DNA of 64,000 nt. Origin: Priestia megaterium. GTDB taxonomy: Bacteria > Bacillota > Bacilli > Bacillales > Bacillaceae_H. Made by a program: the position numbers and the translations under genes. The DNA lies in assembly GCF_023824195.1 (NCBI RefSeq), contig NZ_CP085442.1, positions 844,001 through 908,000 of the forward strand, in the 5' to 3' direction. Below, in pieces: positions 2,612 through 52,530 of this stretch. How positions within the stretch are numbered: the first letter of the stretch is position 1; each line of letters opens with the position of its first letter. The notes below the pieces were generated by a model. That model was not told where the DNA came from. It did not search any database and was given only the letters and a program-made list of their open reading frames with translations.

Positions 2612-2944
2612 AAAAGGTTGAGACATGACGAAATGAATCTAATCTAAAGACGAACAAATGGGATATATGAGCTGAACTGCTTGAGACACCGCAGTTGATT
2701 TCCGTGCAAGACTTCGATTTCCGCGGGCGGCCGGTGAGCCTCCTCGTCGCTTACGCTCCTGCGGGGTCTCACCTGTTCCGCTTTTCCCGCAGGAGTCTTC
2801 GTCTTGCCCTCCAATCAACTGCTAGAAGGAACGAAACAGATGAAACCTATGTTCACTACAACAAAAAAATGAACCACTAATCAAACATTTTGATCAATGG
2901 TTCGTTTTTCATTTCGGCTAAACTACTTTTGTTTCAACCTCTTT
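2612..2944 (-). repeat. MITE-like repeat, copy 1 (minus orientation)
   Basis: About 333 bp intergenic element. It starts AAAAGGTTGAGACA and ends TGTTTCAACCTCTTT, which are imperfect terminal inverted repeats. The middle is GC-rich, and a hairpin with T/A tracts lies near the right end. The same sequence recurs at 21966-22295 (inverted) and 39386-39704, with a short derivative at 52403-52530. It fills the space between two convergent genes. The hairpin end stops 3 bp before the LysR stop codon, so it reads in the LysR direction. No transposase is encoded. Confidence 0.85.
2867..2907 (-). terminator. Terminator hairpin inside repeat copy 1
   Basis: Arms at roughly 2871-2885 and 2889-2903 (GAACCACTAATCAAA against TTTGATCAATGGTTC, minor mismatches) enclose a very short loop. 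An A tract lies on the left and a T tract on the right, so it can terminate transcription in both directions. It serves the convergent TctC-like and LysR genes. Confidence 0.75.
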
Positions 2945-2947
2945 CTA

Positions 2948-3820
2948 TCAGTGTACATCTTTTAAATCCAAGTTTTGAATAAACTCAATAAAAGCTTTTA
3001 CAATATTAATTTTTAAGGAATCCTCATGGTAAAACATCCATGTGCTGCGCGTTAAAGGCTGCTGGTCTTTTGTTTTTAACGTGTATCTGTAAATCTCTGC
3101 TGCGTCGTCAAGCAGCATACTCGGCAAAATCGCATAACCGAGTCCGTTTACAACCATCTTTTTGCACGTTTCTGCTTTATCCACTTCAATACTCACAAGG
3201 GGAGGCTGAGAGTAATTTTCAGCCCACCAGTTATCAACAGATGTTTTTAAAAAACGATCTTGATGATAGTCAATTCGAGGTATATTGGGAAGGTTGTTTA
3301 TGTCAACAGGCTGTGCGGACGCAATGCAAATCGTTTCTTTAAAAAGCAGCTCTTTCTGATCTTGCCAGTTATAATCACCTTTGACAAACGCAATATGAAC
3401 GTCGTGCTTATAAAGTAAGTGGGCCATGTCGCTGCTCCATCCGGTCGTGACTTTGAATTCAACGTCAGGAAATCGCTCTTTAAATAAGCGTAATAGTCCA
3501 GGGAGCTTGTAGTCAGTGAAAAAATTAGACACTCCTAGACGTAAAGTACCGGTTAATTGATCATCCATGTTTAACACATTTTCTTTTATTTTTTGAAGCG
3601 TGAGCAGCATTTCTTCTGCGCACTTGACTAAATATTCTCCCTGCGGTGTAAACTGAACTCCGCGGCGCCCTCTGTTCACGATCTGAACATGAAATTCCTT
3701 CTCCATCTGCTGCAGTCTATGCGTAAGCGCAGGCTGAGAGATAAACAGCTCCTTGGCTGCTTTTGTAATGTTTTTTTCTCGATACAACACTTGTAGAATA
3801 AGCCAATCTCGATCGTCCAT
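2948..3820 (-). CDS. LysR-family transcriptional regulator
   Basis: DNA-binding regulator of 290 aa. The N-terminal winged helix-turn-helix (residues about 1-60) contains ITKAAKELFISQPALTHRLQQMEKEF, the standard LysR recognition region, followed by a LysR_substrate effector-binding domain. It is transcribed away from the AbrB-type membrane protein gene at 3961 across a 140-bp gap, the usual arrangement when a LysR regulator controls its divergent neighbour. The effector cannot be read from sequence. A GGAGGG ribosome site precedes the ATG. Its terminator appears to be supplied by repeat copy 1. Confidence 0.85.
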   Translation of the reverse strand: MDDRDWLILQVLYREKNITKAAKELFISQPALTHRLQQMEKEFHVQIVNRGRRGVQFTPQGEYLVKCAEEMLLTLQKIKENVLNMDDQLTGTLRLGVSNFFTDYKLPGLLRLFKERFPDVEFKVTTGWSSDMAHLLYKHDVHIAFVKGDYNWQDQKELLFKETICIASAQPVDINNLPNIPRIDYHQDRFLKTSVDNWWAENYSQPPLVSIEVDKAETCKKMVVNGLGYAILPSMLLDDAAEIYRYTLKTKDQQPLTRSTWMFYHEDSLKINIVKAFIEFIQNLDLKDVH

Positions 3821-3855
3821 ACTATCCCTCCAGGAATAAAAAAAATGAATGGTTT

Positions 3856-3882
3856 ATAATAAAATTTCGATATTTTAATTAT
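3856..3882. promoter_or_regulatory. Candidate LysR-type operator
   Basis: An AT-rich interrupted palindrome (ATAATAAAAT, then ATTTTAATTAT) lies between the divergent LysR gene and the AbrB-type gene. Its position fits a LysR binding site, but AT-richness makes chance palindromes likely. Confidence 0.35.
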
Positions 3883-3960
3883 CTCTAAAATTATACTATA
3901 GTTAAGAAGAAGAATGTTCGGTGTAAGAAAGAAAAGCCTTGTAGAAGGAAGGAAGTAGAT

Positions 3961-5079
3961 ATGAACGCAAGAATTATTTTTTTACAATCTATATTTTTTA
4001 TTTTACTAACAAGCGTGGGAGGATTTCTTTTATCGTTAACAGGCTTATCCATTGGCTGGATGCTTGGGACCCTCATTTTAGCTGCTATTCTAGCTTTTCG
4101 AAAGCCGCGTTTTTTATCTCAAACAAGCAAAAAAGGTATTCCAAAATATTGGCTGTACGCAGGACAGTGTATTTTAGGGATTGAATTAGGTCAAAAAATT
4201 AACTTATCTGTGTTGACTACGTTTCAATCTCACTGGCCCACCATTACGATTATGCTTTTGCTGTCCGTTGTTTTTTCTCTTTTATCCGGTTATTTGCTAT
4301 GGAAGTTCAGTTCCACAGACTTATTAACAAGCTTTTTCGGCACGACTCCTGGTGGAATGAGCGCAATGCCAGGCATGGCTGAAGAAGTAGGAGCCAATAC
4401 GGCAGTTGTAAGCATTATTCAAACGATGCGCGTGTTTTTAGTTGTGCTTGCTGTTCCTTTATTTGTCGTCTATTGGGGAAGTAATACGGGACGGCATGCA
4501 GTGTCAGTTACTCCGAGTATTTTTCAATGGGAATCACTGTTATGGACAGGCGTTTTAATCGTTACAGCAGTAGTAGGCTATTATATAGGAAAAAAACTTA
4601 AATTTCCTGCTCCTTGGTTAGTAGGAGGAATGCTTACTGTTGCGATTGTTCAAACAGCAGCTTCATCGTACGTGGGCTATAATCTTCAAGCATACTGGCC
4701 TCATTCTGTGATGGTTTTATCGCAAATTTTTATCGCGTCAAGCATTGGTTCTCGCTTTCATAAAGAAATGTTTATTGGCGTAAAAAAAATTATAGTTGTG
4801 GCCCTTATTAATACAATCGGTTTAATCGCTGCTATGTTTGTCTGTGCACTAGCAGTCTCCAAAATAACTGGAATCGAGCTTATCACGTCTATTTTAGCGT
4901 TTGCTCCTGGAGGCATTGCAGAAATGGTAACAACATCAATTGTACTGCAAGCCGATTCGACGTTGGTAGTAGCGGTCCAAGTGCTTCGAATTTTAACCAT
5001 TTGGCTGCTTCTTCCTCCGCTGTTTCGCATGTTTCATCAGTGGGGAGAAAGAAAAAGAATACATTCACACGTTTCATAA
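3961..5079 (+). CDS. AbrB-family polytopic membrane protein
   Basis: Integral membrane protein of 372 aa made of two similar halves, each with about five hydrophobic segments. Both halves carry the proline/glycine motif typical of the AbrB (PF05145) duplication: GTTPGGMSAMPGMAEE in the first and AFAPGGIAEMVTTS in the second. Some databases mislabel the family 'ammonia monooxygenase'; its real substrate is not established, although a transport role is likely. It is divergent from the LysR gene at 2948-3820, which probably regulates it. The ATG follows a GGAAGGAAG ribosome site. This is not the AbrB transition-state regulator. Confidence 0.75.
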   Translation: MNARIIFLQSIFFILLTSVGGFLLSLTGLSIGWMLGTLILAAILAFRKPRFLSQTSKKGIPKYWLYAGQCILGIELGQKINLSVLTTFQSHWPTITIMLLLSVVFSLLSGYLLWKFSSTDLLTSFFGTTPGGMSAMPGMAEEVGANTAVVSIIQTMRVFLVVLAVPLFVVYWGSNTGRHAVSVTPSIFQWESLLWTGVLIVTAVVGYYIGKKLKFPAPWLVGGMLTVAIVQTAASSYVGYNLQAYWPHSVMVLSQIFIASSIGSRFHKEMFIGVKKIIVVALINTIGLIAAMFVCALAVSKITGIELITSILAFAPGGIAEMVTTSIVLQADSTLVVAVQVLRILTIWLLLPPLFRMFHQWGERKRIHSHVS

Positions 5080-5143
5080 TAAATATGTGAATGCACTAGG
5101 CAAAGTAAGAGAGAGTTTTAAAGAGGGAAATGGGGGAGAATAG

Positions 5144-5917
5144 ATGAGTAATAAAGAAATGGTTGTCAGTCAGTTCGGGGGGAATGCCGGAAAGTATGTC
5201 AAAAGTAAAGGTCATGCGAAAGGCAAAGATTTAGCTGTTTTAGCGGAAATTGCTGAAGAAAATAGAGGAGGAAGGCTGCTTGATGTAGCAACAGGAGGAG
5301 GACACGTAGCAAATAAGCTAGCACCTGTCTTTCAAGAAGTAACGGCTTTTGACTTAACTCCTCAAATGTTGCAAAGTGCTGAAGGCTTCATTAAAGAAAA
5401 TGGTCATGAAAATGTATCGTTTGTTCAAGGAGATGCTGAAGATATGCCATTTCAAGATGACGAGTTTGATACGGTAACGTGCAGAATTGCACCGCACCAT
5501 TTTCCTAATATTAAACAGTTCATCAAAGAGGTATACCGAGTGTTAAAGCCAGGGGGACAGTTCTTGCTTATTGATAATGTAGCACCGGAAGTGAATGCTT
5601 ATGACGAGTTTTATAATCGAGTTGAAAAGACAAGAGATCCAAGCCATTATCGTGCTTATAAAAAAACAGAGTGGCTTTCTATGCTTGAAATGCAAGGATT
5701 CCGTACGGAAGTGCTGACAACTTTTCCAAAGCGCTTTTTATTTGATGACTGGTGTGGGATGATGAATGTTCCTGAAGAGACAAAGCGTGAGCTTACTCAA
5801 TATATGCTGAATATACCAAGCGGATTTAAGCAGTTTTTCGAAATTAAAACGAATCAACAAGGAATTGAATCGTTTCAAGGAGAAGCAATCTTTGTAGCGT
5901 GTTACAAAAATAAATAA
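5144..5917 (+). CDS. Class I SAM-dependent methyltransferase (YcgJ/UbiE-like)
   Basis: Soluble methyltransferase of 257 aa. The Rossmann fold is visible from motif I (LLDVATGGGHVANKLA, about residues 45-60), the acidic loop (VTAFDLTPQML) and motif II/III (GDAEDMPFQDDEFDTVTCRIAPHHF). A post-motif VLKPGGQFLLIDNV segment follows. The substrate is not evident; relatives include YcgJ and menaquinone-type methyltransferases, but UbiE/MenG is normally elsewhere. A GGGGGAG ribosome site precedes the ATG, and a bidirectional terminator directly follows the stop. Confidence 0.75.
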   Translation: MSNKEMVVSQFGGNAGKYVKSKGHAKGKDLAVLAEIAEENRGGRLLDVATGGGHVANKLAPVFQEVTAFDLTPQMLQSAEGFIKENGHENVSFVQGDAEDMPFQDDEFDTVTCRIAPHHFPNIKQFIKEVYRVLKPGGQFLLIDNVAPEVNAYDEFYNRVEKTRDPSHYRAYKKTEWLSMLEMQGFRTEVLTTFPKRFLFDDWCGMMNVPEETKRELTQYMLNIPSGFKQFFEIKTNQQGIESFQGEAIFVACYKNK

Positions 5918-5953
5918 AAAGAGGCCAACTCACCGGAGTTGGTCTCTTTTTTA
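5915..5953. terminator. Bidirectional terminator
   Basis: Arms AAAAAGAGGCCAACTC and GGAGTTGGTCTCTTTTTT form a strong stem with a 3-nt loop. It lies between the convergent methyltransferase and opuAB genes. Confidence 0.9.
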
Positions 5954-5954
5954 C

Positions 5955-6800
5955 TTATGCTCGTTGGTTTGAACGATTTCCAAAATATTGAGTAATACGG
6001 TCTAAAATAATCGCTAAAATAACGATTGAAATTCCGGCTTCAAAGCCCGTGCCGACTTCAAGTCGAGAAACTGCACGATATACTTCCGCACCAAGTCCCG
6101 GAGCACCTACAAGAGAGGCGATAACAACCATTGAAAGGGATAGCATGATGCTTTGGTTAATTCCTGCCATGATTGTTTTTGTAGCTAATGGAAGCTGTAC
6201 TTTAAATAATTTTTGTTTTGTTGTTGAACCATACGCATTTGCTGCTTCTACTAAGTCAGCGGGTACTTCACGGATACCTAGGTTCGTTAAGCGAATTGTT
6301 GGAGGCATTGCAAAGATAACAGATGAGATAACACCTGGTACGACACCAATACCAAAGAAGAACAATGCTGGAATCAAATAAACAAATGCGGGCATTGTTT
6401 GCATAAAGTCTAAGATCGGCGTAATAATTCGAGTAACTTTCTCGCTTTGAGATGCCCAAATGCCTAGCGGGATTCCTACTATAATTGAAATCAGTACGCT
6501 TGTTAAAACGAGGGCTAGTGTATCCATGGTTTCTTGCCAGTAGTCAAGGTTAAGAATAAATAACAGGCCAATCATTGATAAAATAGTAAACGACCATTTT
6601 TTACTTGAAAACCAAGCAATGACTCCGACAATTAAGATTAAAATTAATGCTGGTGGAAAGGTTAGAACTAGTACAATAAAACTTACAATACCATCGACAA
6701 TCGCTGAAATAACATCAAAAAATCCTTTAATATTATCGTTTAAAAACGTGACAAAATGGTCAATCCAATTGCCAACGGGAATTTTAGGAATACTATTCAT
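5955..6800 (-). CDS. opuAB: Glycine betaine ABC transporter permease
   Basis: Membrane-spanning subunit (281 aa) of an osmoprotectant importer. The BPD_transp_1 domain shows the EAA loop region (RLTNLGIREVPADLVEAANAYGSTTKQKLFKVQLP), which docks to the ATPase. About seven hydrophobic segments fit the OpuAB/ProW topology. It is last in a three-gene minus-strand operon and overlaps opuAA by 8 nt, so the two are translationally coupled. Likely induced by high osmolarity with the operon. Confidence 0.9.
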   Translation of the reverse strand: MNSIPKIPVGNWIDHFVTFLNDNIKGFFDVISAIVDGIVSFIVLVLTFPPALILILIVGVIAWFSSKKWSFTILSMIGLLFILNLDYWQETMDTLALVLTSVLISIIVGIPLGIWASQSEKVTRIITPILDFMQTMPAFVYLIPALFFFGIGVVPGVISSVIFAMPPTIRLTNLGIREVPADLVEAANAYGSTTKQKLFKVQLPLATKTIMAGINQSIMLSLSMVVIASLVGAPGLGAEVYRAVSRLEVGTGFEAGISIVILAIILDRITQYFGNRSNQRA

Positions 6801-7998
6801 TTACGTTCACCTCATTACTATCAGTACCGGCGAGTGCTTCAATCACTCGTTCTTTTTTTATGATGCCGCGCAGACGATGGTTTTCATCTACAACCGGCAG
6901 TGGGAAACGACTGATAACCATTTTGTCGTACAGGTTTTCTAGTAGCGTATCCGTTGTAACAGTCGGAATATCCGTATCTAATACGTCTGCTGTCAGTTTA
7001 TCTTGTTTAATGGCGCGGCTAATATCATCTGCCGTTACAACTCCTAGAAGAGTTTTTTTCTTGTCTACGACGTAGATGCTTGAATAACCAGCTTCTTGCA
7101 TAATTTTAAGAGCCACGCGCGGACCTCGGTCTACGGTAATGGATTCGGCACGATTCATCACGCTTTCAGCTGTGTATACTTTAGCTACATTAACGTCTTC
7201 CACAAAGCGCTCTACATAATCATTGGCAGGGTTTGTCATAATTTCTTCAGGTGTTCCTACTTGAACAACACTGCCGTCTTTCATTAAAACGATGCGATCT
7301 CCGATTCGAAGAGCTTCATCAAGATCATGGGTAATAAAAATGATTGTGCGTTCCATTTTTTCTTGAAGCTCCAGTAAGAAATCTTGCATGTCTTTACGAA
7401 TAAGCGGATCTAGTGCACTGAATGCTTCATCCATTAATAAAATGTCAGGGTCATTAGCAAGTGCTCGGGCCAGCCCGACGCGCTGTTGCATACCGCCGCT
7501 CAGTTCACCGGGATATTGATTTTCGTACCCTTTCAAACCTACTAATTCAAGCGCTTCTTTTGCTTTCTTTTCACGTTCGGCTTTTGGTGTACCTTGAACT
7601 TCTAATCCGTATTCTGTGTTATCAAGAACCGTACGGTGAGGGAATAAGGCAAAGTTTTGAAAAACCATGCTCATTTTTTTTCGGCGCATGTCGCGAAGTT
7701 CTTCTTTGTTCATTTTTACTACATCGTCACCGTCTAAAATAAGGGATCCAGATGTTGGTTCCACAAGGCGGTTAAACATACGAACTAAAGTGGATTTACC
7801 GCTTCCAGACAGGCCCATAATGACGAAGATTTCACCGGATTTGATTTCGAAGTTTGCTTGATTAACCCCGATTGTCATTCCTGTTTCTTCTAGAATTTCT
7901 TTTTTTGTTTTTCCTTTTTGAAGTAAATCAATCGCTTTTGACGGATTCTTACCAAACACTTTGGTGATATTTTGTACTTTTAATTTTACGTGTTCCAT
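6793..7998 (-). CDS. opuAA: Glycine betaine ABC transporter ATPase with CBS domains
   Basis: Cytoplasmic ATPase subunit, 401 aa. Walker A is GLSGSGKST, the signature LSGGMQQRVGLARAL, Walker B DILLMDEAFSALDPLIR and the switch histidine is in FITHDLDEAL. Residues from about 275 form two CBS domains (AESVMNRAESITVDRGPRVALKIM and ADVLDTDIPTVTTDTLLENL), the ionic-strength or nucleotide sensor of OpuA/ProV proteins. It lies between the binding-protein and permease genes and overlaps the permease start. Confidence 0.93.
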   Translation of the reverse strand: MEHVKLKVQNITKVFGKNPSKAIDLLQKGKTKKEILEETGMTIGVNQANFEIKSGEIFVIMGLSGSGKSTLVRMFNRLVEPTSGSLILDGDDVVKMNKEELRDMRRKKMSMVFQNFALFPHRTVLDNTEYGLEVQGTPKAEREKKAKEALELVGLKGYENQYPGELSGGMQQRVGLARALANDPDILLMDEAFSALDPLIRKDMQDFLLELQEKMERTIIFITHDLDEALRIGDRIVLMKDGSVVQVGTPEEIMTNPANDYVERFVEDVNVAKVYTAESVMNRAESITVDRGPRVALKIMQEAGYSSIYVVDKKKTLLGVVTADDISRAIKQDKLTADVLDTDIPTVTTDTLLENLYDKMVISRFPLPVVDENHRLRGIIKKERVIEALAGTDSNEVNVNE

Positions 7999-9443: not shown

Positions 9444-9444
9444 T

Positions 9445-20764: not shown

Positions 20765-21955
20765 ATGAACAACACCCAAACGATTGCAGCGTCTCAAGAG
20801 AAGATCCTTGAATTGGCTAACCAGTTGGCTAAAGAGTTTTCCAAAACTGCTGTAAAAAGAGATAGAGAAGGTGGAACGCCTCTACATGAGCGTAATCTGC
20901 TTAGAAAAAGCGGTCTTTTAGCCCTCCCGATTCCTAAAGAATACGGAGGTTATGGAGCCGGCTGGCCGATTGTTTTTAAAGTCGTGAATATCATTGCGAA
21001 AGCGGATAGTTCACTTGCACACTTGTTGGGGTATCATTATTTGACGGTTTGTTCGACGTTTCTGTTTGGAAGTACTGAGCAGTACAAAACTTTTTACAAA
21101 GAAACAGCAGCTCACCAGCTATTTTGGGGCAATGCCTTTAATCCTAGAGATTCAGGACTAAAAGCAGTTCGAGAAAATGGACGATTAATGTTCAGCGGAA
21201 GCAAGAGTTTTTGTTCCGGGGCAACCGATTCAGACCGTTTGTTAGTATCGGCTCAAGAGGAGGGAAGCGGTGAGGTATTGCTATGTGTGCTTCCTACTCA
21301 TAGAGCCGGAATCGCTACTGAAGATAATTGGGACGGATTTGGACAGCGCCAAACGGACAGCGGAAGTGTAAAGTTTGAAGAAGTTATTGTTTATGAAGAA
21401 GAAATATTGTATCAAGCAGCTGAAGATCAAAAGGTTTTTCCTACGGTACGAACGCATTTGGCTCAGCTTATGCTCACTCACTTATTGTATGGTATTGCTC
21501 AAGGCGCTTTGGAGGAATCAAAAGCTTATGTGAAGGCTCATACAAAGCCGTGGTTAAGTTCAGATGTTGAAGCAGCGGAGCAAGACCCTTACATTATTCA
21601 GCAATACGGTGAAATGAGTTTAAATCTTCATGCTTGTTCAGTACTTATAGAAAAAGCTGTTACAGAATTTGATCATGCATGGAAAAAAGAAGATGCGCTA
21701 ACGAAACAGCAGCGGGGCGAGTGCGGAGTCGCCATTGCGATGGCTAAAACATTTACTGTCAAAACGGTCTTACATATTACTTCTACTATATTTGATGGGA
21801 TGGGAGCGAGAGCCACGTCTGATCAGTATAAATTTGATCGATACTGGCGCAACGCCCGAACAATTAGCTTACACGATCCTATTGCTTATAAGCTGCGTGA
21901 CATAGGTAAATGGTGTCTTAGCAGTGAACTGCCGCCTATTACACCATATTCATAG
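20765..21955 (+). CDS. Acyl-CoA dehydrogenase-fold monooxygenase, DszC/SfnB-like (second copy)
   Basis: Paralogue (396 aa) of the protein at 18327, aligned along its whole length: both have DREGGTP/DKEGGTP, an IPKEYGGYG/IPQKYGGEG turn, QRQTDSGSVKFEEV/QRQTGSGNVDFENV and a C-terminal MGARATSDQYKFDRYWRNARTIS-type segment. They are only moderately similar, so they probably act on different sulfur compounds or successive steps. The AAAGGAGGG ribosome site lies 15 bp after ssuD. Termination is provided by the hairpin of repeat copy 2. Confidence 0.78.
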   Translation: MNNTQTIAASQEKILELANQLAKEFSKTAVKRDREGGTPLHERNLLRKSGLLALPIPKEYGGYGAGWPIVFKVVNIIAKADSSLAHLLGYHYLTVCSTFLFGSTEQYKTFYKETAAHQLFWGNAFNPRDSGLKAVRENGRLMFSGSKSFCSGATDSDRLLVSAQEEGSGEVLLCVLPTHRAGIATEDNWDGFGQRQTDSGSVKFEEVIVYEEEILYQAAEDQKVFPTVRTHLAQLMLTHLLYGIAQGALEESKAYVKAHTKPWLSSDVEAAEQDPYIIQQYGEMSLNLHACSVLIEKAVTEFDHAWKKEDALTKQQRGECGVAIAMAKTFTVKTVLHITSTIFDGMGARATSDQYKFDRYWRNARTISLHDPIAYKLRDIGKWCLSSELPPITPYS

Positions 21956-21965: not shown

Positions 21966-22295
21966 AAAAAGAGGCTGGGAGAAAAGTAGTTTAGTTGAAG
22001 GAAGATCCGAACGATTCATCGTTCGGATTTTTTATTGGTAGAGTGAACGTAGGTTTCATATATTGAGTTGCTTCTAGCTGTTGATTGGAGGGCAAGACGA
22101 AGACTCCTGCGGGAAAAGCGGAATAGGTGAGACCCCGCAGGAGCGTAAGCGACGAGGAGGCTTATCGGCCGCCCGCGGAAAGCGAAGTCTTGCACGGAAA
22201 TCAACAGCGGTGGAACAAGTGATCCCTGCTAGCTGGTTTATCCCATTTGTTCGTCTTTAGATTGGAATGATGTAGTTATGTCTCAATCTCTTTTT
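21966..22295 (+). repeat. MITE-like repeat, copy 2 (plus orientation)
   Basis: About 330 bp, inverted relative to copies 1 and 3. The left terminal repeat is AAAAAGAGGCTGGGAGA and the right is TGTCTCAATCTCTTTTT. It begins 10 bp after the stop of the DszC-like gene. The GC-rich core matches copy 1 closely, including a reading frame of about 60 codons on the opposite strand that I do not regard as a gene. Confidence 0.85.
22005..22034 (+). terminator. Terminator hairpin inside repeat copy 2
   Basis: Perfect 10-bp arms ATCCGAACGA and TCGTTCGGAT with a 4-nt loop, then TTTTTT. It ends the organosulfur operon 50 bp after the last stop. The stem differs in sequence from those in the other copies. 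Confidence 0.85.
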
Positions 22296-34292: not shown

Positions 34293-34390
34293 TACAACAC
34301 CACTAGGGGTGCTTTCGAAGCTGAGAGAGACGAGAAGTCTTAACCCTTATAACCTGAACTAGGTAATACTAGCGTAGGAAAGAGGTATTG
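34293..34390 (+). ncRNA. TPP (THI-box) riboswitch aptamer
   Basis: All conserved blocks are present in order: CACTAGGGGTGC, CTGAGAGAG, ACCCTTATAACCTGAA, GGTAATACTAGCGTAGGAA. It precedes the thiamine salvage operon by 120 bp, with a terminator between. Binding of thiamine pyrophosphate should switch transcription off. Confidence 0.97.
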
Positions 34391-34452
34391 TAATGGATGT
34401 TTTGTATGGGATTTCCTTACGAACTCGTTATAATAATTTTGTGTATATAAAC

Positions 34453-39385: not shown

Positions 39386-39704
39386 AAGAGGGTTGAGACA
39401 TAACCAAATGAATTCAACCTAAAGACGAACAAATGGGATACATGAGCTGAACCGCTTATTACACCGCAGTTGATTTCCGTGCAAGGCTTCGCTTTCCGCG
39501 GGCGGCCGCTGAGCCTCCTCTGCGGGGTCTCATCTGTTCCGCTTTTCCCGCAGGAGTCTTCACCTTGCCCTCCAATCAACTGCTAGAAGAAACGAAACAG
39601 ATGAAACTATATTCAACATAACAAAAAAAACGAACCACGAATCAAACATTTTGATTAATGGTTCGTTTTTCACTTGGGCTAAAATACTTTTTTTAGCCTC
39701 TTTT
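39386..39704 (-). repeat. MITE-like repeat, copy 3 (minus orientation)
   Basis: About 319 bp, same orientation as copy 1. The left end is AAGAGGGTTGAGACA; the right end TTTAGCCTCTTTT abuts the hxlB stop codon. Relative to copies 1 and 2 it lacks 14 bp of the GC-rich core (between CTCCTC and TGCGGGG), which would shift any reading frame. It lies between convergent fer and hxlB. Confidence 0.85.
39630..39672 (-). terminator. Terminator hairpin inside repeat copy 3
   Basis: Arms CGAACCACGAATCAAA and TTTGATTAATGGTTCG (two mismatches) around a very short loop, with A residues on the left and T on the right; active for hxlB and possibly also for fer. Confidence 0.75.
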
Positions 39705-40262
39705 TTATTCTAAATTTGCATGCTTTCCGTACATTGTATGGGTATCAAGTTCTTTTTTCTCCATGAAGCGAAGAATCAGCGCATCGTAAAAGAGAAGAAG
39801 CGTTTGTTCAAACAGTGACGCCATAGGCTGCACTGTTTGATAACTGCTTTGTTCTTGATCCTTCGGAGCACCGGGCAGCTTCACAATAAAGTCAGCCAGC
39901 TTGCCAAGCATGGAGTCGGGAGAAATTGTGACTACTCCAACTTTTCCCCCAAGTTCTTTTGCTTTTTGAGCGATGGGAATCAAGCTCTTCGTCTCGCCAG
40001 AACCTGATCCGATGATTAATAAATCATCCTGCGTGAAAGTGGAAGTTACGGTTTCTCCAATGACATAAGCATCAATGCCCATATGCATCATACGCATAGC
40101 AAACGACTTGCCCATAAGACCTGAACGGCCTGCTCCTGTGACAAACACTTTTTTAGATGAGATGATGCCATTTACAAGCTGTTCAGCTTCATCGTCAGCG
40201 ATTAGAGCCGTTGTTTGTAAAAGTTCATTCATAACCGTTTTTAAATGTTCGTTCGTCTGCAT
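39705..40262 (-). CDS. hxlB: 6-phospho-3-hexuloisomerase
   Basis: SIS-domain isomerase, 185 aa, converting hexulose-6-phosphate to fructose-6-phosphate in the ribulose monophosphate (RuMP) pathway of formaldehyde fixation. The motif series FVTGAGRSGLMGKSFAMRMMHMG, IGETVTSTFTQDDLLIIGSGSGETKSL and the tail TMYGKHANLE are characteristic of HxlB. It lies 10 bp after hxlA. Its stop codon touches repeat copy 3. Confidence 0.93.
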   Translation of the reverse strand: MQTNEHLKTVMNELLQTTALIADDEAEQLVNGIISSKKVFVTGAGRSGLMGKSFAMRMMHMGIDAYVIGETVTSTFTQDDLLIIGSGSGETKSLIPIAQKAKELGGKVGVVTISPDSMLGKLADFIVKLPGAPKDQEQSSYQTVQPMASLFEQTLLLFYDALILRFMEKKELDTHTMYGKHANLE

Positions 40263-46010: not shown

Positions 46011-48344
46011 ATGAATATGATTAAAGGAGAATGGAAAAAAATCTTTTCCAAACCAATGACTATTGTTGTGATTTGCGGATTGTTATTTGTTCCATTACTT
46101 TATAATGTCATCTTTTTATCTGCTTACTGGGATCCATATGGAAAAACAGATCAAATTCCAGTTGCAGTGGTAAATGAAGATAAAGGTGCTACGTTAGATG
46201 GAAAGAAATTGAATGTTGGTCGTGATTTTGTTGATGATTTAAAGAAAAACGATAAATTTGACTGGAAATTTACGAACAAAGAAAAAGCGTTAGAAGGCTT
46301 AAAAAATGAGGATTACTATTTAGTTTTAGAAATTCCAAAGAATTTCTCCAAAAATGCAACAACATTAATGGATAAAGATCCTAAAAAAATGAAATTTATC
46401 TATCATACAAATGCCGGAAAGAACTATTCAGGCGCTCAAATTAGCTCAAATGCAGTGGCTAAAATCAATGATCAGATTAAAGAAGCAGTCACAAAGCAGT
46501 ATGCTGAAACGGTATTTGACAGCTTTAAACAAGTAGCGGACGGTCTTCAAAAAGCAAGTGACGGTGCAGGAGAACTCGAAAACGGCTCGAAAACGCTGCG
46601 AGATAACATGAAGAAATTAGCAGACAGCACGGTTACATTCGAAGACGGTACAGCTAAATTAGCAAGTGGGTTAACGGATGCACGAAAAGGAGCAACAGAT
46701 TTAAATGCAGGTGCCGCTAAGCTACTAAACGGTGCGGACACAATTAATGAAAACTTAGGCAGCCTAAACAGCGGTTTAGGGAAGTTAGAAAGTGGAAGCA
46801 GTCAATTATATAGCGCTTCTAGTCAATTAGAAACTGGAGCTGTTGGTGTTCGAGATGGATTGTCAAAGTTACAAAGTGCAACCAAACAACTTAATGATGG
46901 AACGCAGACACTTCAAGGAAAGCTTCCGCAGTTCACGAGCGGCTTAAACCAAGTGGACGCTGAAGTGAGCAGCGTTACGCAGCAAATTAATCAAGCGGAA
47001 CAGGAAATTACGCAGATTAAACAGCAGGTCGATTCAAAAAAAGCAGAGTTTGAACAGCAGCAGCAAGCTCTCATTGACAGTATTAACAGCAATGAGTCCA
47101 TTCCTGATGAGCAAAAACAAACGCTGATTGCAGGAATTAAAAAACTCACGTCTCAGCAGTTTATGGATGAACAGCAGCAAAAAGCAGAGCAGCTAAAAGC
47201 AAAAGTAGATAAAGTGCAAGAGTTATCTGCGGCGCTGCAAAAGCTTTCTAAAGGCGGAGAAGATATTCAAAGCGCTATTAATAAAATTGCTGATGGACAA
47301 AGTCAGCTGTACGATGGACAAACGAAAGTATATAACGGTGCTGTTAAATTAGCGGACGGAGAAAAGCAGTTCAACAGCAAATTTGCAGAGCTAAACAGCG
47401 GTATAGCTGACGCTCATACAGGAGCTGGAAAGCTTGCTGACGGGCAGCAGCAAATTGTGGATGGACTTAAGAAGTCTGAACAAGGAAGCGCAGCGCTAGC
47501 AAATGGTTTAACACAGCTAGAAAACGGGGCAACCAAATTAGCAAATGGTTCTAAAGAGTTAACAAATGGTTCGTCCAAACTATATGATGGTTCATCTAAA
47601 TTATCAGATGGAACAAGCGAGCTTCATTCATCTTTAGCAGATGGTGCAAAAGATGCAAAAGATGTTAAAGCGGATGATAAAACATATAGCATGTTTTCAA
47701 ATCCAACGGATTTAAAATCAGATAAACAAAACAACGTAGATAAGTACGGTGTCGGATTAGCTCCATACATCTTGTGTATTGGCTTGTTTGCGGGAACGTT
47801 AATGTTTTCGGCAGTATATCCAATGAAAGAGCCATCAATTCGACCGACATCAGGCATTTCGTGGTTCTTAAGTAAGTTTAGTGTCATTACTATTGTAGGT
47901 ATGCTGCAGGCAGCGATTGCTGTTACAGCTCTTCTATGGGGCTTGCATTTAAACGTAACAAGCATTTGGCACTTCTATATCTTTACCATGATTACAGGTG
48001 TGACGTTCTTTACACTTATCTTGTTCTTAACAACAGGGTTAGGAAAAGTAGGGCAGTATTTAGCCTTTATTATTCTGCTGCTTCAAATTGGCGGCAGTGC
48101 AGGTACATTCCCTAAAGCACTTGTGCCGGAATTCTTCCAGGCAATCAATCCATACTTGCCTATGACCTATGCAATTCGCGGTTTCCGTGAAATCATTTCA
48201 ATTGGTGATGATTTCGGCTATGTATGGCATCAGGCTGGCGTACTTGGAATCTTTGCAGCAATCTTCATCACTCTTTCATTGATAATGTTTTATATCAATG
48301 CCAGAAAAGAGAAGCATCACACAGAGGAAGAGGCAGCAGCATAA
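46011..48344 (+). CDS. yhgE: YhgE/Pip family membrane protein
   Basis: Large protein of 777 aa. One N-terminal membrane helix (PMTIVVICGLLFVPLLYNVIFL) is followed by an extracytoplasmic region. From about residue 180 to 560 this consists of repeated short units such as ADGLQKASDGAGELENGSKTL and coiled coil, and a C-terminal block of about five membrane helices (from VGLAPYILCIGLFAGTLMF) resembles ABC-2 permeases. Relatives include Lactococcus Pip (phage infection protein) and EsaA-like proteins. Its transport role is not known. An upstream palindrome suggests control by an unlinked regulator. Confidence 0.85.
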   Translation: MNMIKGEWKKIFSKPMTIVVICGLLFVPLLYNVIFLSAYWDPYGKTDQIPVAVVNEDKGATLDGKKLNVGRDFVDDLKKNDKFDWKFTNKEKALEGLKNEDYYLVLEIPKNFSKNATTLMDKDPKKMKFIYHTNAGKNYSGAQISSNAVAKINDQIKEAVTKQYAETVFDSFKQVADGLQKASDGAGELENGSKTLRDNMKKLADSTVTFEDGTAKLASGLTDARKGATDLNAGAAKLLNGADTINENLGSLNSGLGKLESGSSQLYSASSQLETGAVGVRDGLSKLQSATKQLNDGTQTLQGKLPQFTSGLNQVDAEVSSVTQQINQAEQEITQIKQQVDSKKAEFEQQQQALIDSINSNESIPDEQKQTLIAGIKKLTSQQFMDEQQQKAEQLKAKVDKVQELSAALQKLSKGGEDIQSAINKIADGQSQLYDGQTKVYNGAVKLADGEKQFNSKFAELNSGIADAHTGAGKLADGQQQIVDGLKKSEQGSAALANGLTQLENGATKLANGSKELTNGSSKLYDGSSKLSDGTSELHSSLADGAKDAKDVKADDKTYSMFSNPTDLKSDKQNNVDKYGVGLAPYILCIGLFAGTLMFSAVYPMKEPSIRPTSGISWFLSKFSVITIVGMLQAAIAVTALLWGLHLNVTSIWHFYIFTMITGVTFFTLILFLTTGLGKVGQYLAFIILLLQIGGSAGTFPKALVPEFFQAINPYLPMTYAIRGFREIISIGDDFGYVWHQAGVLGIFAAIFITLSLIMFYINARKEKHHTEEEAAA

Positions 48345-48355
48345 TTTAATTAATA

Positions 48356-48396
48356 GAAAAAGAGAGTTCCAGTTTAAAAAGGAATTCTCTTTTTCT
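48356..48396 (+). terminator. Terminator of yhgE
   Basis: Arms AAAAAGAGAGTTCC and GGAATTCTCTTTTT with one wobble pair. Confidence 0.87.
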
Positions 48397-48441
48397 TTAT
48401 GATAGTATAGGTTTACGTATAAAAGAGGGGAACGTGAATGC

Positions 48442-49293
48442 ATGCAGCTTATAAAATTTTCGGTATATGAAAGTGATCGTGTGAAAAAGTGGCAGGAAGG
48501 GCTGAAAGAATGGGACGGTTCAATATCGGAACGGATGATAAATGACCGAGCTGAAGATGAATTTTGGCAGCGGTATATAGAAAAAATGTCTTTTAATTCA
48601 GAAAATGACTCTGTAGTCAAACAGCTTCAACAAGAACTTCTTGCTTTTTTGAATCCAAATGACTCTGTTATGGAAATTGGCCCTGGCTGGGGGAATTATA
48701 CGTTTTCGATTGCTGATTATGTAAAAGAACTTACGTGTATGGATTGTTCGCCAAGCATTATTCGCTACTTACAAACGCAATCGGATGCCCGCTCTAATCT
48801 AAAGTTCATAGAAGGTAAATGGGAGTATAAGCGTCTAACAGATAACTATGATGCCGTAGTAGGAATAAATTGTTTTTACCGTATGCATAATATTGTCGAT
48901 GGTCTCTTAAATATGAATGATTCGGCTAATCGTTTGGCGGTTATTGGCATGTCAGCGGGTCCAGAAAAGCCTCATTACGTAGAGTTACATAGAAAACTTG
49001 GGTACGAGATTAAATGGCGCCGTAAGGAATATATTGACTTACTAAATATTTTATATGAACTGGGCATTTATGCAGATTGTAAGCTGGTTCCTATAACCAA
49101 AACGGTAACCTATGAGACATACGAAGATCTCATCAAGAAGAACTCGACAAAGGTGCTTTCTAAAGATATTGACAAGTTAGAAACTGAGAAGATTATTTTA
49201 CAGCATGTAAAGAAAATAAATGGCACATATGAGTATACGTATCAATATCATATGGCTTTTATTTATTGGAAACCGATAAAAAGAACCCGTTGA
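48442..49293 (+). CDS. SAM-dependent methyltransferase, substrate unknown
   Basis: Class I methyltransferase, 283 aa. Motif I is SVMEIGPGWGNYTFSI, followed by the acidic loop LTCMDCSPSIIRYL, and the post-I segment is NYDAVVGINCFYRMHNIVDGLLNM. An N-terminal helical extension of about 70 aa (WQEGLKEWDGSISERM) precedes the fold. Substrate and pathway cannot be deduced from the neighbours. The stop codon is inside the terminator stem. The ribosome site GAGGGGAAC is rather far (12 nt) from the ATG. Confidence 0.65.
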   Translation: MQLIKFSVYESDRVKKWQEGLKEWDGSISERMINDRAEDEFWQRYIEKMSFNSENDSVVKQLQQELLAFLNPNDSVMEIGPGWGNYTFSIADYVKELTCMDCSPSIIRYLQTQSDARSNLKFIEGKWEYKRLTDNYDAVVGINCFYRMHNIVDGLLNMNDSANRLAVIGMSAGPEKPHYVELHRKLGYEIKWRRKEYIDLLNILYELGIYADCKLVPITKTVTYETYEDLIKKNSTKVLSKDIDKLETEKIILQHVKKINGTYEYTYQYHMAFIYWKPIKRTR

Positions 49294-49315
49294 GTAAAAT
49301 CAACGGGTTCTTTTT
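49278..49315. terminator. Bidirectional terminator overlapping the methyltransferase stop
   Basis: Perfect arms AAAAAGAACCCGTTGA and TCAACGGGTTCTTTTT; the TGA stop lies in the left arm. It separates this gene from convergent rpoN. Confidence 0.92.
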
Positions 49316-49350
49316 AGTAGTGGTAAAGCTGTAATTTAGAATAAGCAATA

Positions 49351-50688
49351 TTAAAATCGTCGCCGCTTAGAAGAACTTTCAATTCCTGCTTCTTCACGGT
49401 ATTTAGCTACTGTTCTTCTTGAAATTTGAATTCCTTCGCTGGAAAGAAGAGACATGAGCTTTTGATCTGAAAGAGGTTTTAATTTATTTTCTTCGGCAAT
49501 TAATGTTTTAATTTTTTCTTTTATAAAGGCAGTAGAATTGCTTTGTTCGCCATCAGTTCGCTCTAAAGAATTGGTGAAAAAGTATTTTAACTCAAACAGC
49601 CCGCGTGGCGTTTGAATATACTTTCCGTTAGTCGCACGGCTTACCGTTGATTCGTGACAGTCTACTTTTTGAGCAATATCTTTTAAGGTAAGCGGCTTTA
49701 GCCCCGAAATACCCATTTCGAAAAAATCTTGCTGATGTTCCACAATGGCTTTGGACACGTTGTAAATCGTCGCATTACGCTGCTCAATACTATTGATTAG
49801 CCAAGTAGCTTCATGCATTTTTTCCTGCACGTATCGATCCGTCGTTACGCATGCGGAACGATGAACCAGCTTTTGATAGGTGCTGTTAATCTCGATGGGC
49901 GGAAGCAGCTCGCTATGAAGAATGACATGATAGCGGCCATCAATTTTTTGGACCGTTACATCAGGTGAAATATACTTCGTAAGCGGGACGTGGAAATCTC
50001 CTGCCGGACGAGGATTTAATGTCCGGAGACAGTCTACAATTTCTTGTACTTCACGCATCGAAATAGAATATTTTTTTGAAATGTTCCGATATTTTTTGTT
50101 AGCAATATCTTCAATATCATGTTTTACCACATCGTATAAAAAGGGAGGCTTCGACTTTTTGGCCTTAATTTGAATAAGCAGTGAATCAACAAAATTTTGA
50201 GCGCCTACTCCAATTGGATCAAAGCTTTGTAAAACGTGAATCATATCGTTGACTTCGTTAATTGAAACATTCAGCAGTTCGGCTGCCAATTTTGGCTCAA
50301 TTGCTAAAAAGCCGTTTTTATTTAAGTTTCCAATTAGAAATTGAACGATGTGTTTTTGGTGTGAGTGTAAATGATTTAGCATAGACAGCTGCTCTAATAA
50401 ATGACTCTCTAATGTCACAGTTTGATCAGATATATAATTAAACGGATTATACTCGTCATCGGTATAACCTTTTGAATATGAACGCTGTTCTCGAGTATCA
50501 AATGAATCTTTTTGCTGAGAGTCGCCAGCAGACAGTTTAATTACAGGATTTTCATTGACTTGCTGATGAAGATAATGAACTAAATCGGCCGTAGAATAAT
50601 TTAAAATGTTGATAGACTGACGTAATTCAGGTGTCATGGCCAATTTTAATAGTTGTTTTTGGGATAAATCTAAACCTAATTGCATCAT
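49351..50688 (-). CDS. rpoN: RNA polymerase sigma-54 factor
   Basis: SigL/RpoN, 445 aa from ATG 50688, near AGGTGA; the next codon is also ATG. The N-terminal activator-interacting region is glutamine/leucine-rich (MQLGLDLSQKQLLKLAMTPELRQSINIL). The core-binding domain includes FDPIGVGAQNFVDSLLIQ. A helix-turn-helix reads VDCHESTVSRATNGKYIQTPRG, and the C-terminal RpoN box is ISRRTVAKYREEAGI. Known regulons in Bacilli include amino acid and branched-chain catabolism. I found no -24/-12 promoter in this window. Confidence 0.95.
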   Translation of the reverse strand: MMQLGLDLSQKQLLKLAMTPELRQSINILNYSTADLVHYLHQQVNENPVIKLSAGDSQQKDSFDTREQRSYSKGYTDDEYNPFNYISDQTVTLESHLLEQLSMLNHLHSHQKHIVQFLIGNLNKNGFLAIEPKLAAELLNVSINEVNDMIHVLQSFDPIGVGAQNFVDSLLIQIKAKKSKPPFLYDVVKHDIEDIANKKYRNISKKYSISMREVQEIVDCLRTLNPRPAGDFHVPLTKYISPDVTVQKIDGRYHVILHSELLPPIEINSTYQKLVHRSACVTTDRYVQEKMHEATWLINSIEQRNATIYNVSKAIVEHQQDFFEMGISGLKPLTLKDIAQKVDCHESTVSRATNGKYIQTPRGLFELKYFFTNSLERTDGEQSNSTAFIKEKIKTLIAEENKLKPLSDQKLMSLLSSEGIQISRRTVAKYREEAGIESSSKRRRF

Positions 50689-50900
50689 TGAATCACCTAT
50701 CATTCTTGAGTTTTATTTCGACAATTCTGGCTGCATCGTTCGACATCATCATAGCTGAAAATGCGAAAGAATTCTATAGTGTTGTCAGATGTTCTTACAC
50801 AGGGGCGAATCGCAAGAAAGAGTAGGAGAATAGATAAAACAAAAACGAATAGTTCCTGACAACAGCTATTCGTTTGTTTTAACAGAGCCGCTAGGAGAAC

Positions 50901-51230
50901 TTAGCTGCAATTTGGGGTGTTTCCCATTCTTCTATCTCCCCATGCGCACATCATATTTAAAATTTCTCGTAAGGTTTCGCCTTCTTCACTGAGTGAGTAC
51001 TCTACTTTAGGAGGAACTTCATTGTATACTTTTCTATTAACCACACCGTCTTTTTCTAATTCTTTTAGCTGTTGAGACAGCATTTTTTTGGTAATAGCAG
51101 GCATAGCTCGCTGAAGTTCACTAAAACGTTTTTCGCCTTCTTTTAATAGGCATAAAATAACGACTTTCCATTTCCCGCCGATTACTTCAAGCGTTGCTTC
51201 AACAGGTACATTATAGTGGGGTGCTTTCAC
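50901..51230 (-). CDS. HxlR/DUF24-family regulator
   Basis: Winged-helix regulator of 109 aa, GTG start 6 nt after GGAGGA. The core LEVIGGKWKVVILCLLKEGEKRFSELQRAMPAITKKMLSQQLKELEKDG and [18 protein letters not shown] identifies the family. It lacks the N-terminal cysteine of hxlR at the usual place but has one in VVILCLL. It is divergent from a zinc-type/quinone oxidoreductase-like gene, resembling the YodB/CatR/HypR arrangement in which redox or electrophile stress is sensed. It probably represses its divergent neighbour. Confidence 0.82.
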   Translation of the reverse strand: MKAPHYNVPVEATLEVIGGKWKVVILCLLKEGEKRFSELQRAMPAITKKMLSQQLKELEKDGVVNRKVYNEVPPKVEYSLSEEGETLREILNMMCAWGDRRMGNTPNCS

Positions 51231-51290
51231 CGTTAATCCTCCATTCATAAACAGATATGAAATATGGATATAATAATTTAATATCCATAG

Positions 51291-51320
51291 ACCTAGGTTA
51301 CCGGGAAGGTACCTGGTTAC
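51291..51320. promoter_or_regulatory. Candidate operator in the HxlR/oxidoreductase divergent gap
   Basis: Two perfect palindromes, ACCTAGGT (51291-51298) and AGGTACCT (51307-51314), are spaced 16 bp centre to centre, with related GGTTAC elements at 51296 and 51315. The spacing fits binding on one DNA face. No matching consensus is known to me. Confidence 0.5.
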
Positions 51321-51411
51321 ATGAAAGTGCCGTCTTTTGTAAACAACATGTATTTATTATACTGAAAAAGAACTTTTAATTGAAGGAAGAAATGTAAAAG
51401 GGGAGATCTTG

Positions 51412-52395
51412 ATGAAAGCTTTACTGCTAGAAGGCAAAGGGAAAGTAAGTGAGATGAAAGTCGGAGATATCCAAAAGCCGCATCCAGCTAAAGGTGAAAT
51501 TTTAGTTAAAATTAAAGCTACTGCCCTGAACCCTGTAGATTATAAAACAGGAAACGGCGGTAATCCTAGTTGGACATATCCTCACGTATTAGGACTTGAT
51601 TCAGCTGGCGTTGTCGAAGAAGTGGGAGAAGAAGTCACAACTGTCAAAGTCGGAGACCGCGTTGTATATCATAGCGATTTATCAAAAAAAGGCGGGTTTG
51701 CACAATACGGAGTGACAACAGCTCACACAGTTTCTCTTATTCCGCAAGGAGTTTCATTTGAAGACGCTGCGGCTATTCCATGTGCGGGGTATACAGCATA
51801 TCAAGCATTGTTTCACAAAATGAACGCTTCAAAAGGACAAACGATTTTAATTCACGCAGGTGCTGGAGGGGTTGGAGGGTTTGGCATTCAGCTTGCCAAA
51901 AATGCAGGCCTTACAGTGCTCACAACCGCATCTTCTGCCAATCATAAGTTTGTGAAAAGTTTAGGTGCTGATTATGTAATCGACTACCGTAAAGAAGACT
52001 TTGTGAAAAAAGTGCTGGAGCTTACCGATGGAATCGGTGTAGATTTAGTCTTGGATACCGTTGGGCGTGACAATGCAGACGAGTCGGTGAAGGCTCTTGC
52101 TTTTAATGGTCAAATTGCATTCATCGCAGGACCGCCTAATGTAAACGATGCGATTTCGTTTGCGCACCCACTATCGTTTCATCAAGTTGCATTAGGAAGT
52201 GTACATCAGTCTAATAACGTAAAAGAACAGCGAAAACTTGCTGACATGGGAAATAGAATGCTTTTGCTTTTACAAGAAAATAAGCTAAATGCACTCGTGG
52301 AAAAAGTCATTTCACTAGACGAAGTGTCAGCAGCATTAGATGAACTGGCGGCTCGTCGAGTAAAAGGGAAAATTGTAGCTGTAATAGATAAATGA
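51412..52395 (+). CDS. Medium-chain oxidoreductase, quinone reductase-like
   Basis: NADPH-dependent MDR protein, 327 aa. The GroES-like half includes KATALNPVDYKTGNGG and LGLDSAGVVEEVG; the Rossmann half has ILIHAGAGGVGGFGIQLAKNAGLTVLTTAS. Zinc-binding residues of true alcohol dehydrogenases are missing, which points to a quinone or alkenal reductase. It is divergent from an HxlR-type regulator that may respond to electrophiles. The ATG at 51412 follows GGGGAG. Confidence 0.82.
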   Translation: MKALLLEGKGKVSEMKVGDIQKPHPAKGEILVKIKATALNPVDYKTGNGGNPSWTYPHVLGLDSAGVVEEVGEEVTTVKVGDRVVYHSDLSKKGGFAQYGVTTAHTVSLIPQGVSFEDAAAIPCAGYTAYQALFHKMNASKGQTILIHAGAGGVGGFGIQLAKNAGLTVLTTASSANHKFVKSLGADYVIDYRKEDFVKKVLELTDGIGVDLVLDTVGRDNADESVKALAFNGQIAFIAGPPNVNDAISFAHPLSFHQVALGSVHQSNNVKEQRKLADMGNRMLLLLQENKLNALVEKVISLDEVSAALDELAARRVKGKIVAVIDK

Positions 52396-52402
52396 TAGAA
52401 CG

Positions 52403-52530
52403 AAAAAGAGATTGAGACAAAAGTATTTTAGTTGAAGTAAAAAACGAACTATTGATTAATAGTTCGTTTTTTTTTGTTATTATGATGAATATAGGTTTCA
52501 TGTATTTAGTTGTGTTCCAGCCTCTTTTAA
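52403..52530 (+). repeat. MITE-like repeat, copy 4 (short derivative, plus orientation)
   Basis: About 128 bp. The left end AAAAAGAGATTGAGACA and right end CCAGCCTCTTTTA match the termini of the longer copies, and the first 120 bp follow copy 2 (AAAGTATTTTAGTTGAAG, hairpin, ATAGGTTTCATGTATT). The GC-rich core of roughly 190 bp is absent. It begins 8 bp after the oxidoreductase stop and its right end overlaps the stop codon of the convergent ABC gene. Confidence 0.8.
52442..52475 (+). terminator. Terminator hairpin inside repeat copy 4
   Basis: Perfect 12-bp arms AAACGAACTATT and AATAGTTCGTTT, loop GATT, then nine T. It can act on both strands between convergent genes. Confidence 0.9.

What the first reader, a model, noticed from the sequence alone, without database searches (positions are those of the whole stretch)
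2612..52530. Four-copy repeat family whose hairpin end always sits right behind a stop codon in the same orientation
Copies at 2612-2944 (-), 21966-22295 (+), 39386-39704 (-) and 52403-52530 (+) share terminal inverted repeats (AAAGAGGTTGAGACA-like) and a hairpin with a T tract near one end. The hairpin end lies 3, 10, 0 and 8 bp from the stop of the LysR, DszC-like, hxlB and oxidoreductase genes, each time reading in the gene's direction. Three of four copies fill gaps between convergent genes. This looks like a non-autonomous element that either targets 3' ends or survives only where it acts as a terminator.
Basis: seen in the sequence. Interest (0 to 1): 0.78.

Follow-up and report, generated by a model that had tools for sequence, protein, structure and literature searches.

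The report
Mobile element that swaps gene terminators
A short mobile DNA element, present in well over a hundred copies in this bacterium, lands on the hairpin at the end of a gene, removes it and puts a hairpin of its own in its place, so it seems to spread by exchanging one transcription stop signal for another.

Summary
The genome has 140 left ends of the element (0 for the reversed control). Of 111 copies examined, 109 have a callable upstream gene: on the hairpin's strand in 103, with its stop within 17 bp in 76 (2.5% expected for random intergenic placement).

Close relatives explain why. At 20 of 20 distinct loci where this genome or relative G008 has the element and relative G003 is scored empty, G003 has a hairpin of intrinsic-terminator type, mostly unrelated in sequence from site to site. 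The element sits exactly there and the native stem-loop is gone. All four window copies are among the 20. No target-site duplication was found.

This matches the stem-loop-replacing transposition published for IS1272 (IS1182 family), here by a non-autonomous element of about 320 bp that brings its own hairpin. That hairpin shows compensatory changes (11 of 20 pairs in one alignment); orientation follows the upstream gene 67:3 in tandem gaps. Three IS1182 insertion sequences elsewhere share its ends and also have hairpins just inside them.

I read it as a terminator-exchanging MITE, a new variant of a known kind. Termination in the cell and the mobilising transposase are inferred.

The parts
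2612..2944 (-). Copy 1 of the element, between a (+) gene ending at 2600 and the LysR gene ending at 2948 (-)
   Evidence: empty site in G003 is a native hairpin; G001, G007 and G008 carry an element here in the opposite orientation
2864..2910 (-). Carried terminator-like hairpin of copy 1
   Evidence: fold -20.4 kcal/mol, z -5.3
2694..2819 (-). GC-rich palindromic core of copy 1
   Evidence: shared repeat blocks D1/D2
21966..22295 (+). Copy 2 of the element, behind the DszC-like acyl-CoA dehydrogenase gene (20765-21955)
   Evidence: native hairpin with a 23-bp stem at this site in G003
22000..22033 (+). Carried terminator-like hairpin of copy 2
   Evidence: fold -19.1 kcal/mol, z -4.5
22080..22205 (+). 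GC-rich palindromic core of copy 2
   Evidence: fold of 22080-22216 -54.1 kcal/mol, z -3.6
39386..39704 (-). Copy 3 of the element, behind the hxlB-like SIS-domain gene (39705-40262, -); left end diverged
   Evidence: essentially the same native hairpin with a 14-bp stem stands here in both G003 and G008, so this insertion is derived
39625..39671 (-). Carried terminator-like hairpin of copy 3
   Evidence: fold -22.5 kcal/mol, z -6.1 (extent from the centroid structure)
39469..39580 (-). GC-rich core of copy 3 (shortened by an internal deletion)
52403..52530 (+). Copy 4 of the element (short form, no GC core), behind the oxidoreductase gene (51409-52395) and facing the (-) gene that ends at 52527
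   Evidence: native hairpin with one mismatch at this site in G003; a short form also in G008
52439..52472 (+). Carried terminator-like hairpin of copy 4
   Evidence: fold -14.7 kcal/mol, z -5.1

Best explanation
The repeat is a non-autonomous, MITE-like derivative of an IS1182-family insertion sequence that transposes by replacing stem-loops. Its target is a hairpin of intrinsic-terminator type. The native stem-loop is removed and the element takes its place, usually leaving the A-rich and T-rich feet of the old hairpin as its flanks. About 30 bp inside its left end the element carries its own hairpin with a T tract, so the gene that lost its terminator receives another when the element lies the right way round. 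Shown here: exact replacement of hairpins, no sign of target-site duplication, the 3'-end and orientation bias, covariation of the carried hairpin, and IS1182 insertion sequences elsewhere with the same terminal repeats and hairpins inside them. Inferred: that an IS1182-type transposase mobilised it in trans, that insertion orientation is initially random and then filtered by selection, and that the native and carried hairpins terminate transcription in the cell.
For: Empty sites: of 16 own loci alignable on both sides in G003, 14 are empty and all 14 hold a native hairpin with a 10-23-bp stem. Of 26 G008 pattern hits, 16 have an empty G003 site, each a hairpin (site 187304 has a mismatch and is scored). 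The two sets make 20 distinct loci, 20 of 20. At 883695 and 1045089 G003 and G008 share essentially the same hairpin and only this genome has the element, which fixes the direction of change. Position: 76 of 109 within 17 bp of a same-strand stop. Orientation 67:3 in tandem gaps, p 1e-16, and it follows the gene also against replication (8 of the 67 on the lagging strand). Covariation: 11 of 20 pairs changed on both sides, 94.6% of cells paired, 0 of 500 shuffles as high; 6 of 24 pairs and 97.0% in a second class, 0-1 of 500. Flanks: direct repeats at the shuffled level (138 of 300), inverted match above it (2 of 300). IS1182 link: 3 of 79 fetched IS1182-type loci (L204, L206, L239) have the 11-base core end, at most one mismatch, on both sides of the transposase, with hairpins of 17-19 bp at about +30 to +75 in 5 of 6 ends. 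Precedent: IS1272/TnSha1 (PMC5678879, PMC4923244).
Against: No intact IS1182 transposase was found in this genome (one marginal match each, none), so the mobilising enzyme is not identified. Own, G003 and G008 are nearly equidistant (0.047, 0.047, 0.054), so the direction of change is fixed directly at only two loci, plus copy 1 by more distant relatives. No expression or transposition data. The shuffle controls for covariation do not remove shared descent, and structure-templated DNA repair could also make paired changes. Only 3 of the 6 IS1182 end-hairpins are followed by 5 or more T. Hairpin class shows no link to gap type (Fisher p 0.64). At one locus G008 has an element facing the wrong way in a tandem gap. 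The published IS1272 work also reports targets that are not inverted repeats and one in a coding region.
Confidence: 0.87

Rival explanations
1. An element with no target preference inserts at random and is kept only behind genes, where its terminator does no harm.
For: The orientation bias and covariation suggest that selection acts on the hairpin.
Against: It predicts insertion beside, not instead of, the native terminator and a broad spread of distances. At all 20 loci the native hairpin is gone. Of G003 3' ends with a gap of at least 60 bp only 78 of 160 have a stem of 10 bp or more in the first 90 bp, by a somewhat stricter rule than that used for the empty sites.
Confidence: 0.04
2. Not transposition but ectopic gene conversion or recombination between terminators through their A and T tracts.
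For: The flanks shared with the native hairpins are mostly A- and T-rich.
Against: Only a few A/T bases are shared, the replaced hairpins are mostly unrelated in sequence, the insert of about 320 bp has precise ends, and those ends match transposase-bearing IS1182 elements.
Confidence: 0.05
3. The element is the ancestral state and G003 reverted to simple hairpins.
For: Own, G003 and G008 are nearly equidistant.
Against: The hairpins differ from locus to locus and do not look derived from the element's ends. Two loci share one hairpin between G003 and G008. The more distant G002, G004 and G009 have hairpins and no element at the copy-1 locus (read by eye).
Confidence: 0.03
4. A side question, compatible with the best explanation: opposite orientations at one locus (copy 1) come from inversion of one element in place rather than from repeated insertion.
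For: The inverted G008 copy ranks own copy 1 first among own copies (90.5% against 89.0% for the best paralogue).
Against: The margin is small. At G003 323970 / G008 342457 the opposite-facing copies belong to different hairpin classes, which points to repeated insertion into one terminator.
Confidence: 0.4

Closest known systems
IS1272 and TnSha1 of staphylococci (IS1182 family; stem-loop-replacing transposition)
   Same: Target is a stem-loop, often a transcription terminator, with little primary-sequence conservation; the stem-loop or part of it is lost; no target-site duplication; both orientations at one terminator reported (PMC5678879: abstract, the section on targets, part 1 of 2 of the Discussion; PMC4923244: passages and part 1 of 2 of the Discussion).
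   Different: Here the mover is a non-autonomous element of about 320 bp with 140 left ends that carries its own hairpin and shows a strong orientation bias. PMC5678879 gives 13 shared IS1272 copies in its strains, and also reports some non-inverted-repeat targets.
   Same: AGRCTGGGACA-type terminal repeats at both ends; hairpins of 17-19 bp about 30-75 bp inside 5 of 6 ends, where the element has its own.
   Different: They carry a transposase; the element has none and keeps a hairpin near one end only. Only 3 of the 6 end-hairpins are followed by 5 or more T.
SPRITE, RUP and BOX repeats of Streptococcus pneumoniae
   Same: Small interspersed elements, SPRITE with a rho-independent-terminator-like sequence (passages of the review PMC10969869).
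   Different: No replacement of native terminators is described in the passages I saw; ends and family not compared here.
bcr1 repeats of the Bacillus cereus group
   Same: Interspersed non-coding repeats of Bacillaceae (recalled; search listing only).
   Different: Not compared in sequence here; I recall no terminator replacement for them.

Membership tests
MITE (non-autonomous element with terminal inverted repeats) | Terminal inverted repeats, short, no transposase gene, many copies | tested here: met
   TIR consensus AAAAAGAGGCTGGGACA / AAAAAGAGATTGAGACA in 99 of 111 copies with a recognisable right end; median 322 bp, longest internal ORF 92 aa; 140 left ends
MITE (non-autonomous element with terminal inverted repeats) | Target-site duplication | tested here: not met
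   Direct flank repeats no better than shuffled (138 of 300 shuffles at least as high); absence is expected for stem-loop replacers, so this lowers 'classical MITE', not 'MITE of an IS1182-type element'
IS1182-family derivative | Ends shared with an IS1182 insertion sequence | tested here: met
   3 of 79 fetched IS1182-type loci (lists were capped, some loci overlap) have the 11-base core end on both sides of the transposase, at most one mismatch; beyond the core only a few more bases agree
IS1182-family derivative | Mobilised by an IS1182 transposase | not testable with these tools
   Only marginal matches in the own genome; needs a transposition assay
Stem-loop (IR)-replacing transposition as in IS1272 | Target is an inverted repeat that is lost on insertion | tested here: met
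   20 of 20 loci scored empty
Stem-loop (IR)-replacing transposition as in IS1272 | No target-site duplication | tested here: met
Intrinsic terminator | Stable hairpin followed by a T tract, kept by compensatory change | tested here: met
   In one search, 105 of 111 pass a lenient automatic fold test; 4 of the 6 failures were cut short by my T-run rule and show full hairpins, 2 have a hairpin with a broken T tract. One copy that passed (2883631) has lost its 5' arm by eye. A strict ungapped rule is met by 88 of 111.
Intrinsic terminator | RNA 3' ends map to it | not testable with these tools
   no RNA data at hand
Known RNA family (Rfam) | Match above gathering score | tested here: not met
   the only match in the window is a TPP riboswitch elsewhere

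The most novel reading that the evidence does not exclude
Terminator exchange is a general life style: IS1182-type insertion sequences of Bacillales and their MITEs carry a transcription terminator just inside their ends, so that when they destroy a host terminator by stem-loop replacement they supply another. This would make terminators a nearly cost-free landing site and let one element family take over a large share of a genome's terminators.
Probability: 0.5. Interest if true: 0.8.

Novelty: new variant of a known kind. Interest (0 to 1): 0.7.

Why it matters
It would explain how a repeat can exceed a hundred copies in a compact genome: by replacing the one kind of sequence it can itself supply. 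It gives a natural series of terminator swaps behind orthologous genes (20 loci compared here between close relatives) with which terminator strength, directionality and read-through could be measured, and it extends stem-loop-replacing transposition from a staphylococcal insertion sequence to a large non-autonomous family with relatives in at least eleven genera of the order. None of the listings of my ten searches of the open-access library showed such an element in this genus; the last, 'megaterium' with 'miniature inverted-repeat', found no paper. Most subscription papers are not in that library.

Tried and rejected
Rfam match for the element: none in the window. G006 L161/L168 as the parent insertion sequence: rejected after reading the sequence; an IS1182-type insertion sequence with other ends seems to lie inside a diverged copy of the element at the place of its hairpin (by eye). 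L251 (a 2.16-kb element in Rummeliibacillus) as an autonomous copy: its ORFs look like an IS110-type transposase (by eye, no profile run), so probably a nested insertion. The 2-kb span in L259 holds ORFs that do not look like a transposase (by eye). Hairpin class against gap type: no association (Fisher p 0.64). Orthologues as each other's closest copies: only 7 of 17 rank first, by my reading mostly because of internal deletions. In-place inversion at copy 1: left open. Phages: no match.

Corrections to my notes: entry 2 gave 93 copies within 79 bp, the listing gives 94; entry 4 called L161 a parent; entry 5 took the copy-1 inversion as shown; entry 6 gave 17 empty G008 sites, the rows give 16.
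Full report
OBSERVATION. The hairpin lies near the left end in each and folds well below shuffled sequence (z -4.5 to -6.1). Gaps to the upstream stop are 3, 10, 0 and 7 bp by my gene calls. The terminal-repeat pattern with up to 3 mismatches occurs 10 times in the window against 2.6 expected.

GENOME-WIDE. The window lies at 844001-908000 of contig 1 of a 5.98-Mb genome. A 23-base left-end pattern finds 140 places with up to 3 mismatches and none for the reversed control. I fetched the surroundings of the 100 listed places and some others, plus twenty evenly spaced 20-kb stretches as background, and called genes with a simple phase-specific Markov score of my own. A pattern at up to 4 mismatches gives 111 distinct copies in these stretches; at least 29 of the 140 were not examined, and window copy 3, whose left end has diverged, is not among the 111. 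The upstream gene can be called for 109. It is on the hairpin's strand in 103, with its stop within 17 bp in 76 and within 79 bp in 94. Random intergenic placement gives 0.445, 0.025 and 0.099. Of 15 outliers (opposite strand or more than 79 bp), 13 have some ORF of at least 30 aa ending within 60 bp, which my gene finder may have missed. Gap types: 67 tandem with the hairpin serving the upstream gene, 34 convergent, 3 divergent, 3 tandem the other way, 4 not classifiable. The orientation follows the gene rather than the replication fork: 8 of the 67 lie on the lagging strand as estimated from gene strands.

EMPTY SITES. Copy 1 was compared first. Relative G003, with flanks 97% and 94% identical, has a plain hairpin at the site. 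I then took 400 kb each of G003 and G008. Of 16 own loci alignable on both sides in G003, 14 are empty, one has an element only 69% like ours (probably a separate insertion), and one has a 1.9-kb difference that I did not resolve. All 14 empty sites hold a hairpin with a 10-23-bp stem and a T-rich 3' foot. Of 18 own loci alignable in G008, 16 are filled and 2 empty. The two empty ones (883695, which is window copy 3, and 1045089) carry essentially the same hairpin as G003, so the element is derived there. Of 26 G008 pattern hits, 16 have an empty G003 site, each a hairpin (187304 has a mismatch and is scored); 3 have no orthologue in the stretch and 7 were not scored as empty (filled, or right end not found). 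Ten of the 16 are loci already among the 14, so the union is 20 distinct loci, 20 of 20. As controls, 78 of 160 G003 3' ends with a gap of at least 60 bp have a stem of at least 10 bp, and 1 of 27 divergent gaps does (this rule allows no mismatch and asks for 3 G-C pairs, so it is stricter than that). The native stem-loop is absent where the element is present, so this is replacement, not insertion beside.

BOUNDARIES. Direct repeats at the flanks are at the shuffled level, while flanks match as inverted repeats more than shuffled (position -2 also). This is what would remain when a palindrome's feet are left on both sides.

THE CARRIED HAIRPIN. There are 103 distinct best ungapped hairpins among 111 copies. 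A strict ungapped rule (stem of at least 7, T run of at least 4 at the foot) is met by 88 of 111, a lenient fold-based rule by 105 of 111. In an alignment of 25 copies chosen for similar geometry, 94.6% of cells pair and 11 of 20 pairs have changes on both sides, with 0 of 500 shuffles as high on any of the five measures and slid controls far lower. In a second class of 14 copies it is 97.0% and 6 of 24, with 0-1 of 500 shuffles as high. I chose these 39 rows by class and geometry out of the 111, so they are not a random sample. At two sites G008 keeps only remnants that still contain the hairpin.

RELATIVES AND FAMILY. In 61 genomes searched, own included, 15 have the left end at up to 2 mismatches: 106 copies here; 67, 41, 68, 74, 16 and 1 in six of nine same-genus relatives, none in the other three; and 1-23 copies in 8 genomes of other families of the order. 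Exact matches in named genomes (34 stretches) lie in Priestia aryabhattai, Pseudalkalibacillus, Metabacillus, Sutcliffiella, Niallia, Domibacillus, Rummeliibacillus, Lysinibacillus, Ornithinibacillus, Terribacillus and Halobacillus; 7 of the 34 have a right end at 159-161 bp and no GC core by pattern. Four plasmid records, all Priestia megaterium, hold at least 80% of the element at one place. IS1182 transposase matches are common in the order (197 of 299 genomes at E <= 0.001, 94 over the cut-off), but this genome has only one marginal match and G001, G003, G007 and G008 none. Among 79 fetched IS1182-type loci (lists capped, some overlapping) three, L204, L206 and L239, have the element's 11-base core end, with at most one mismatch, on both sides of the transposase. 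In L206 the transposase frame runs out through its own terminal repeat into the flank. Inside those ends lie hairpins of 17-19 bp at about +30 to +75 in 5 of 6 cases and one of 11 bp; stems in interior windows are 5-12 bp; 3 of the 6 are followed by 5 or more T. The element's hairpin has its 5' foot at a median of +30.

INTERPRETATION. Wan et al. 2017 (PMC5678879; abstract, the section on targets, and part 1 of 2 of the Discussion seen) describe IS1272 replacing inverted repeats without duplication; their older copies had inverted-repeat or other targets. Furi et al. 2016 (PMC4923244; passages and part 1 of 2 of the Discussion seen) describe IS1272 and TnSha1 landing in hairpins, several of them terminators by RNA-seq and one in a coding region, with loss of the hairpin or part of it and in both orientations. 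The present element behaves the same way but is small, non-autonomous and numerous, and it brings a hairpin of its own. I conclude that it is a terminator-exchanging MITE of IS1182 type. That transposition is by an IS1182 enzyme, that orientation is filtered by selection, and that the hairpins terminate transcription are inferences. For orientation: a palindromic target gives no direction, TnSha1 is reported in both orientations at one terminator, and one G008 element faces the other way from its G003 counterpart in a tandem gap.

LIMITS. Empty sites were compared in one syntenic stretch of 400 kb only. Direction of change is fixed directly at two loci and supported at copy 1 by more distant relatives.

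Noticed in passing
window 34295-34397 (+): TPP riboswitch aptamer, the only Rfam match in the window at gathering scores.
   Followed up: no
window 22080-22205 and the cores of copies 1 and 3: The GC-rich palindromic core also occurs without the element's ends: in G005 at a place with no terminal repeat found (L117) and, as part matches, on plasmids of several Bacillales genera. It may be a repeat of its own.
   Followed up: partly
L161 660-2290 and L168 1313-1970 (G006): An IS1182-type insertion sequence with other ends appears, by eye, to sit inside a diverged copy of the element at the place of its hairpin: a terminator swapper swapped in turn.
   Followed up: partly
L245 near 7799 (Priestia aryabhattai): A remnant of about 40 bp in which the two terminal repeats alone can form a hairpin with A and T tracts: after internal deletion the ends themselves look like a terminator (by eye).
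   Followed up: no
G003 C3:323970 and G008 C1 near 1042457: Different hairpin classes in opposite orientation at the same site, which points to independent insertions into one terminator.
   Followed up: yes
L206 1378-3099 (-), unnamed G095: The IS1182 transposase frame (574 codons) has no stop before the end of the insertion sequence and runs into the flank.
   Followed up: no
L251 1679-3840 (Rummeliibacillus suwonensis): Element of 2.16 kb with two ORFs that look like a broken IS110-type transposase, probably nested in the element (by eye).
   Followed up: partly
G000:C1 2883631 and 1430204: Copies with a decayed hairpin (5' arm lost) or a broken T tract; candidates for natural loss of the carried terminator.
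   Followed up: no
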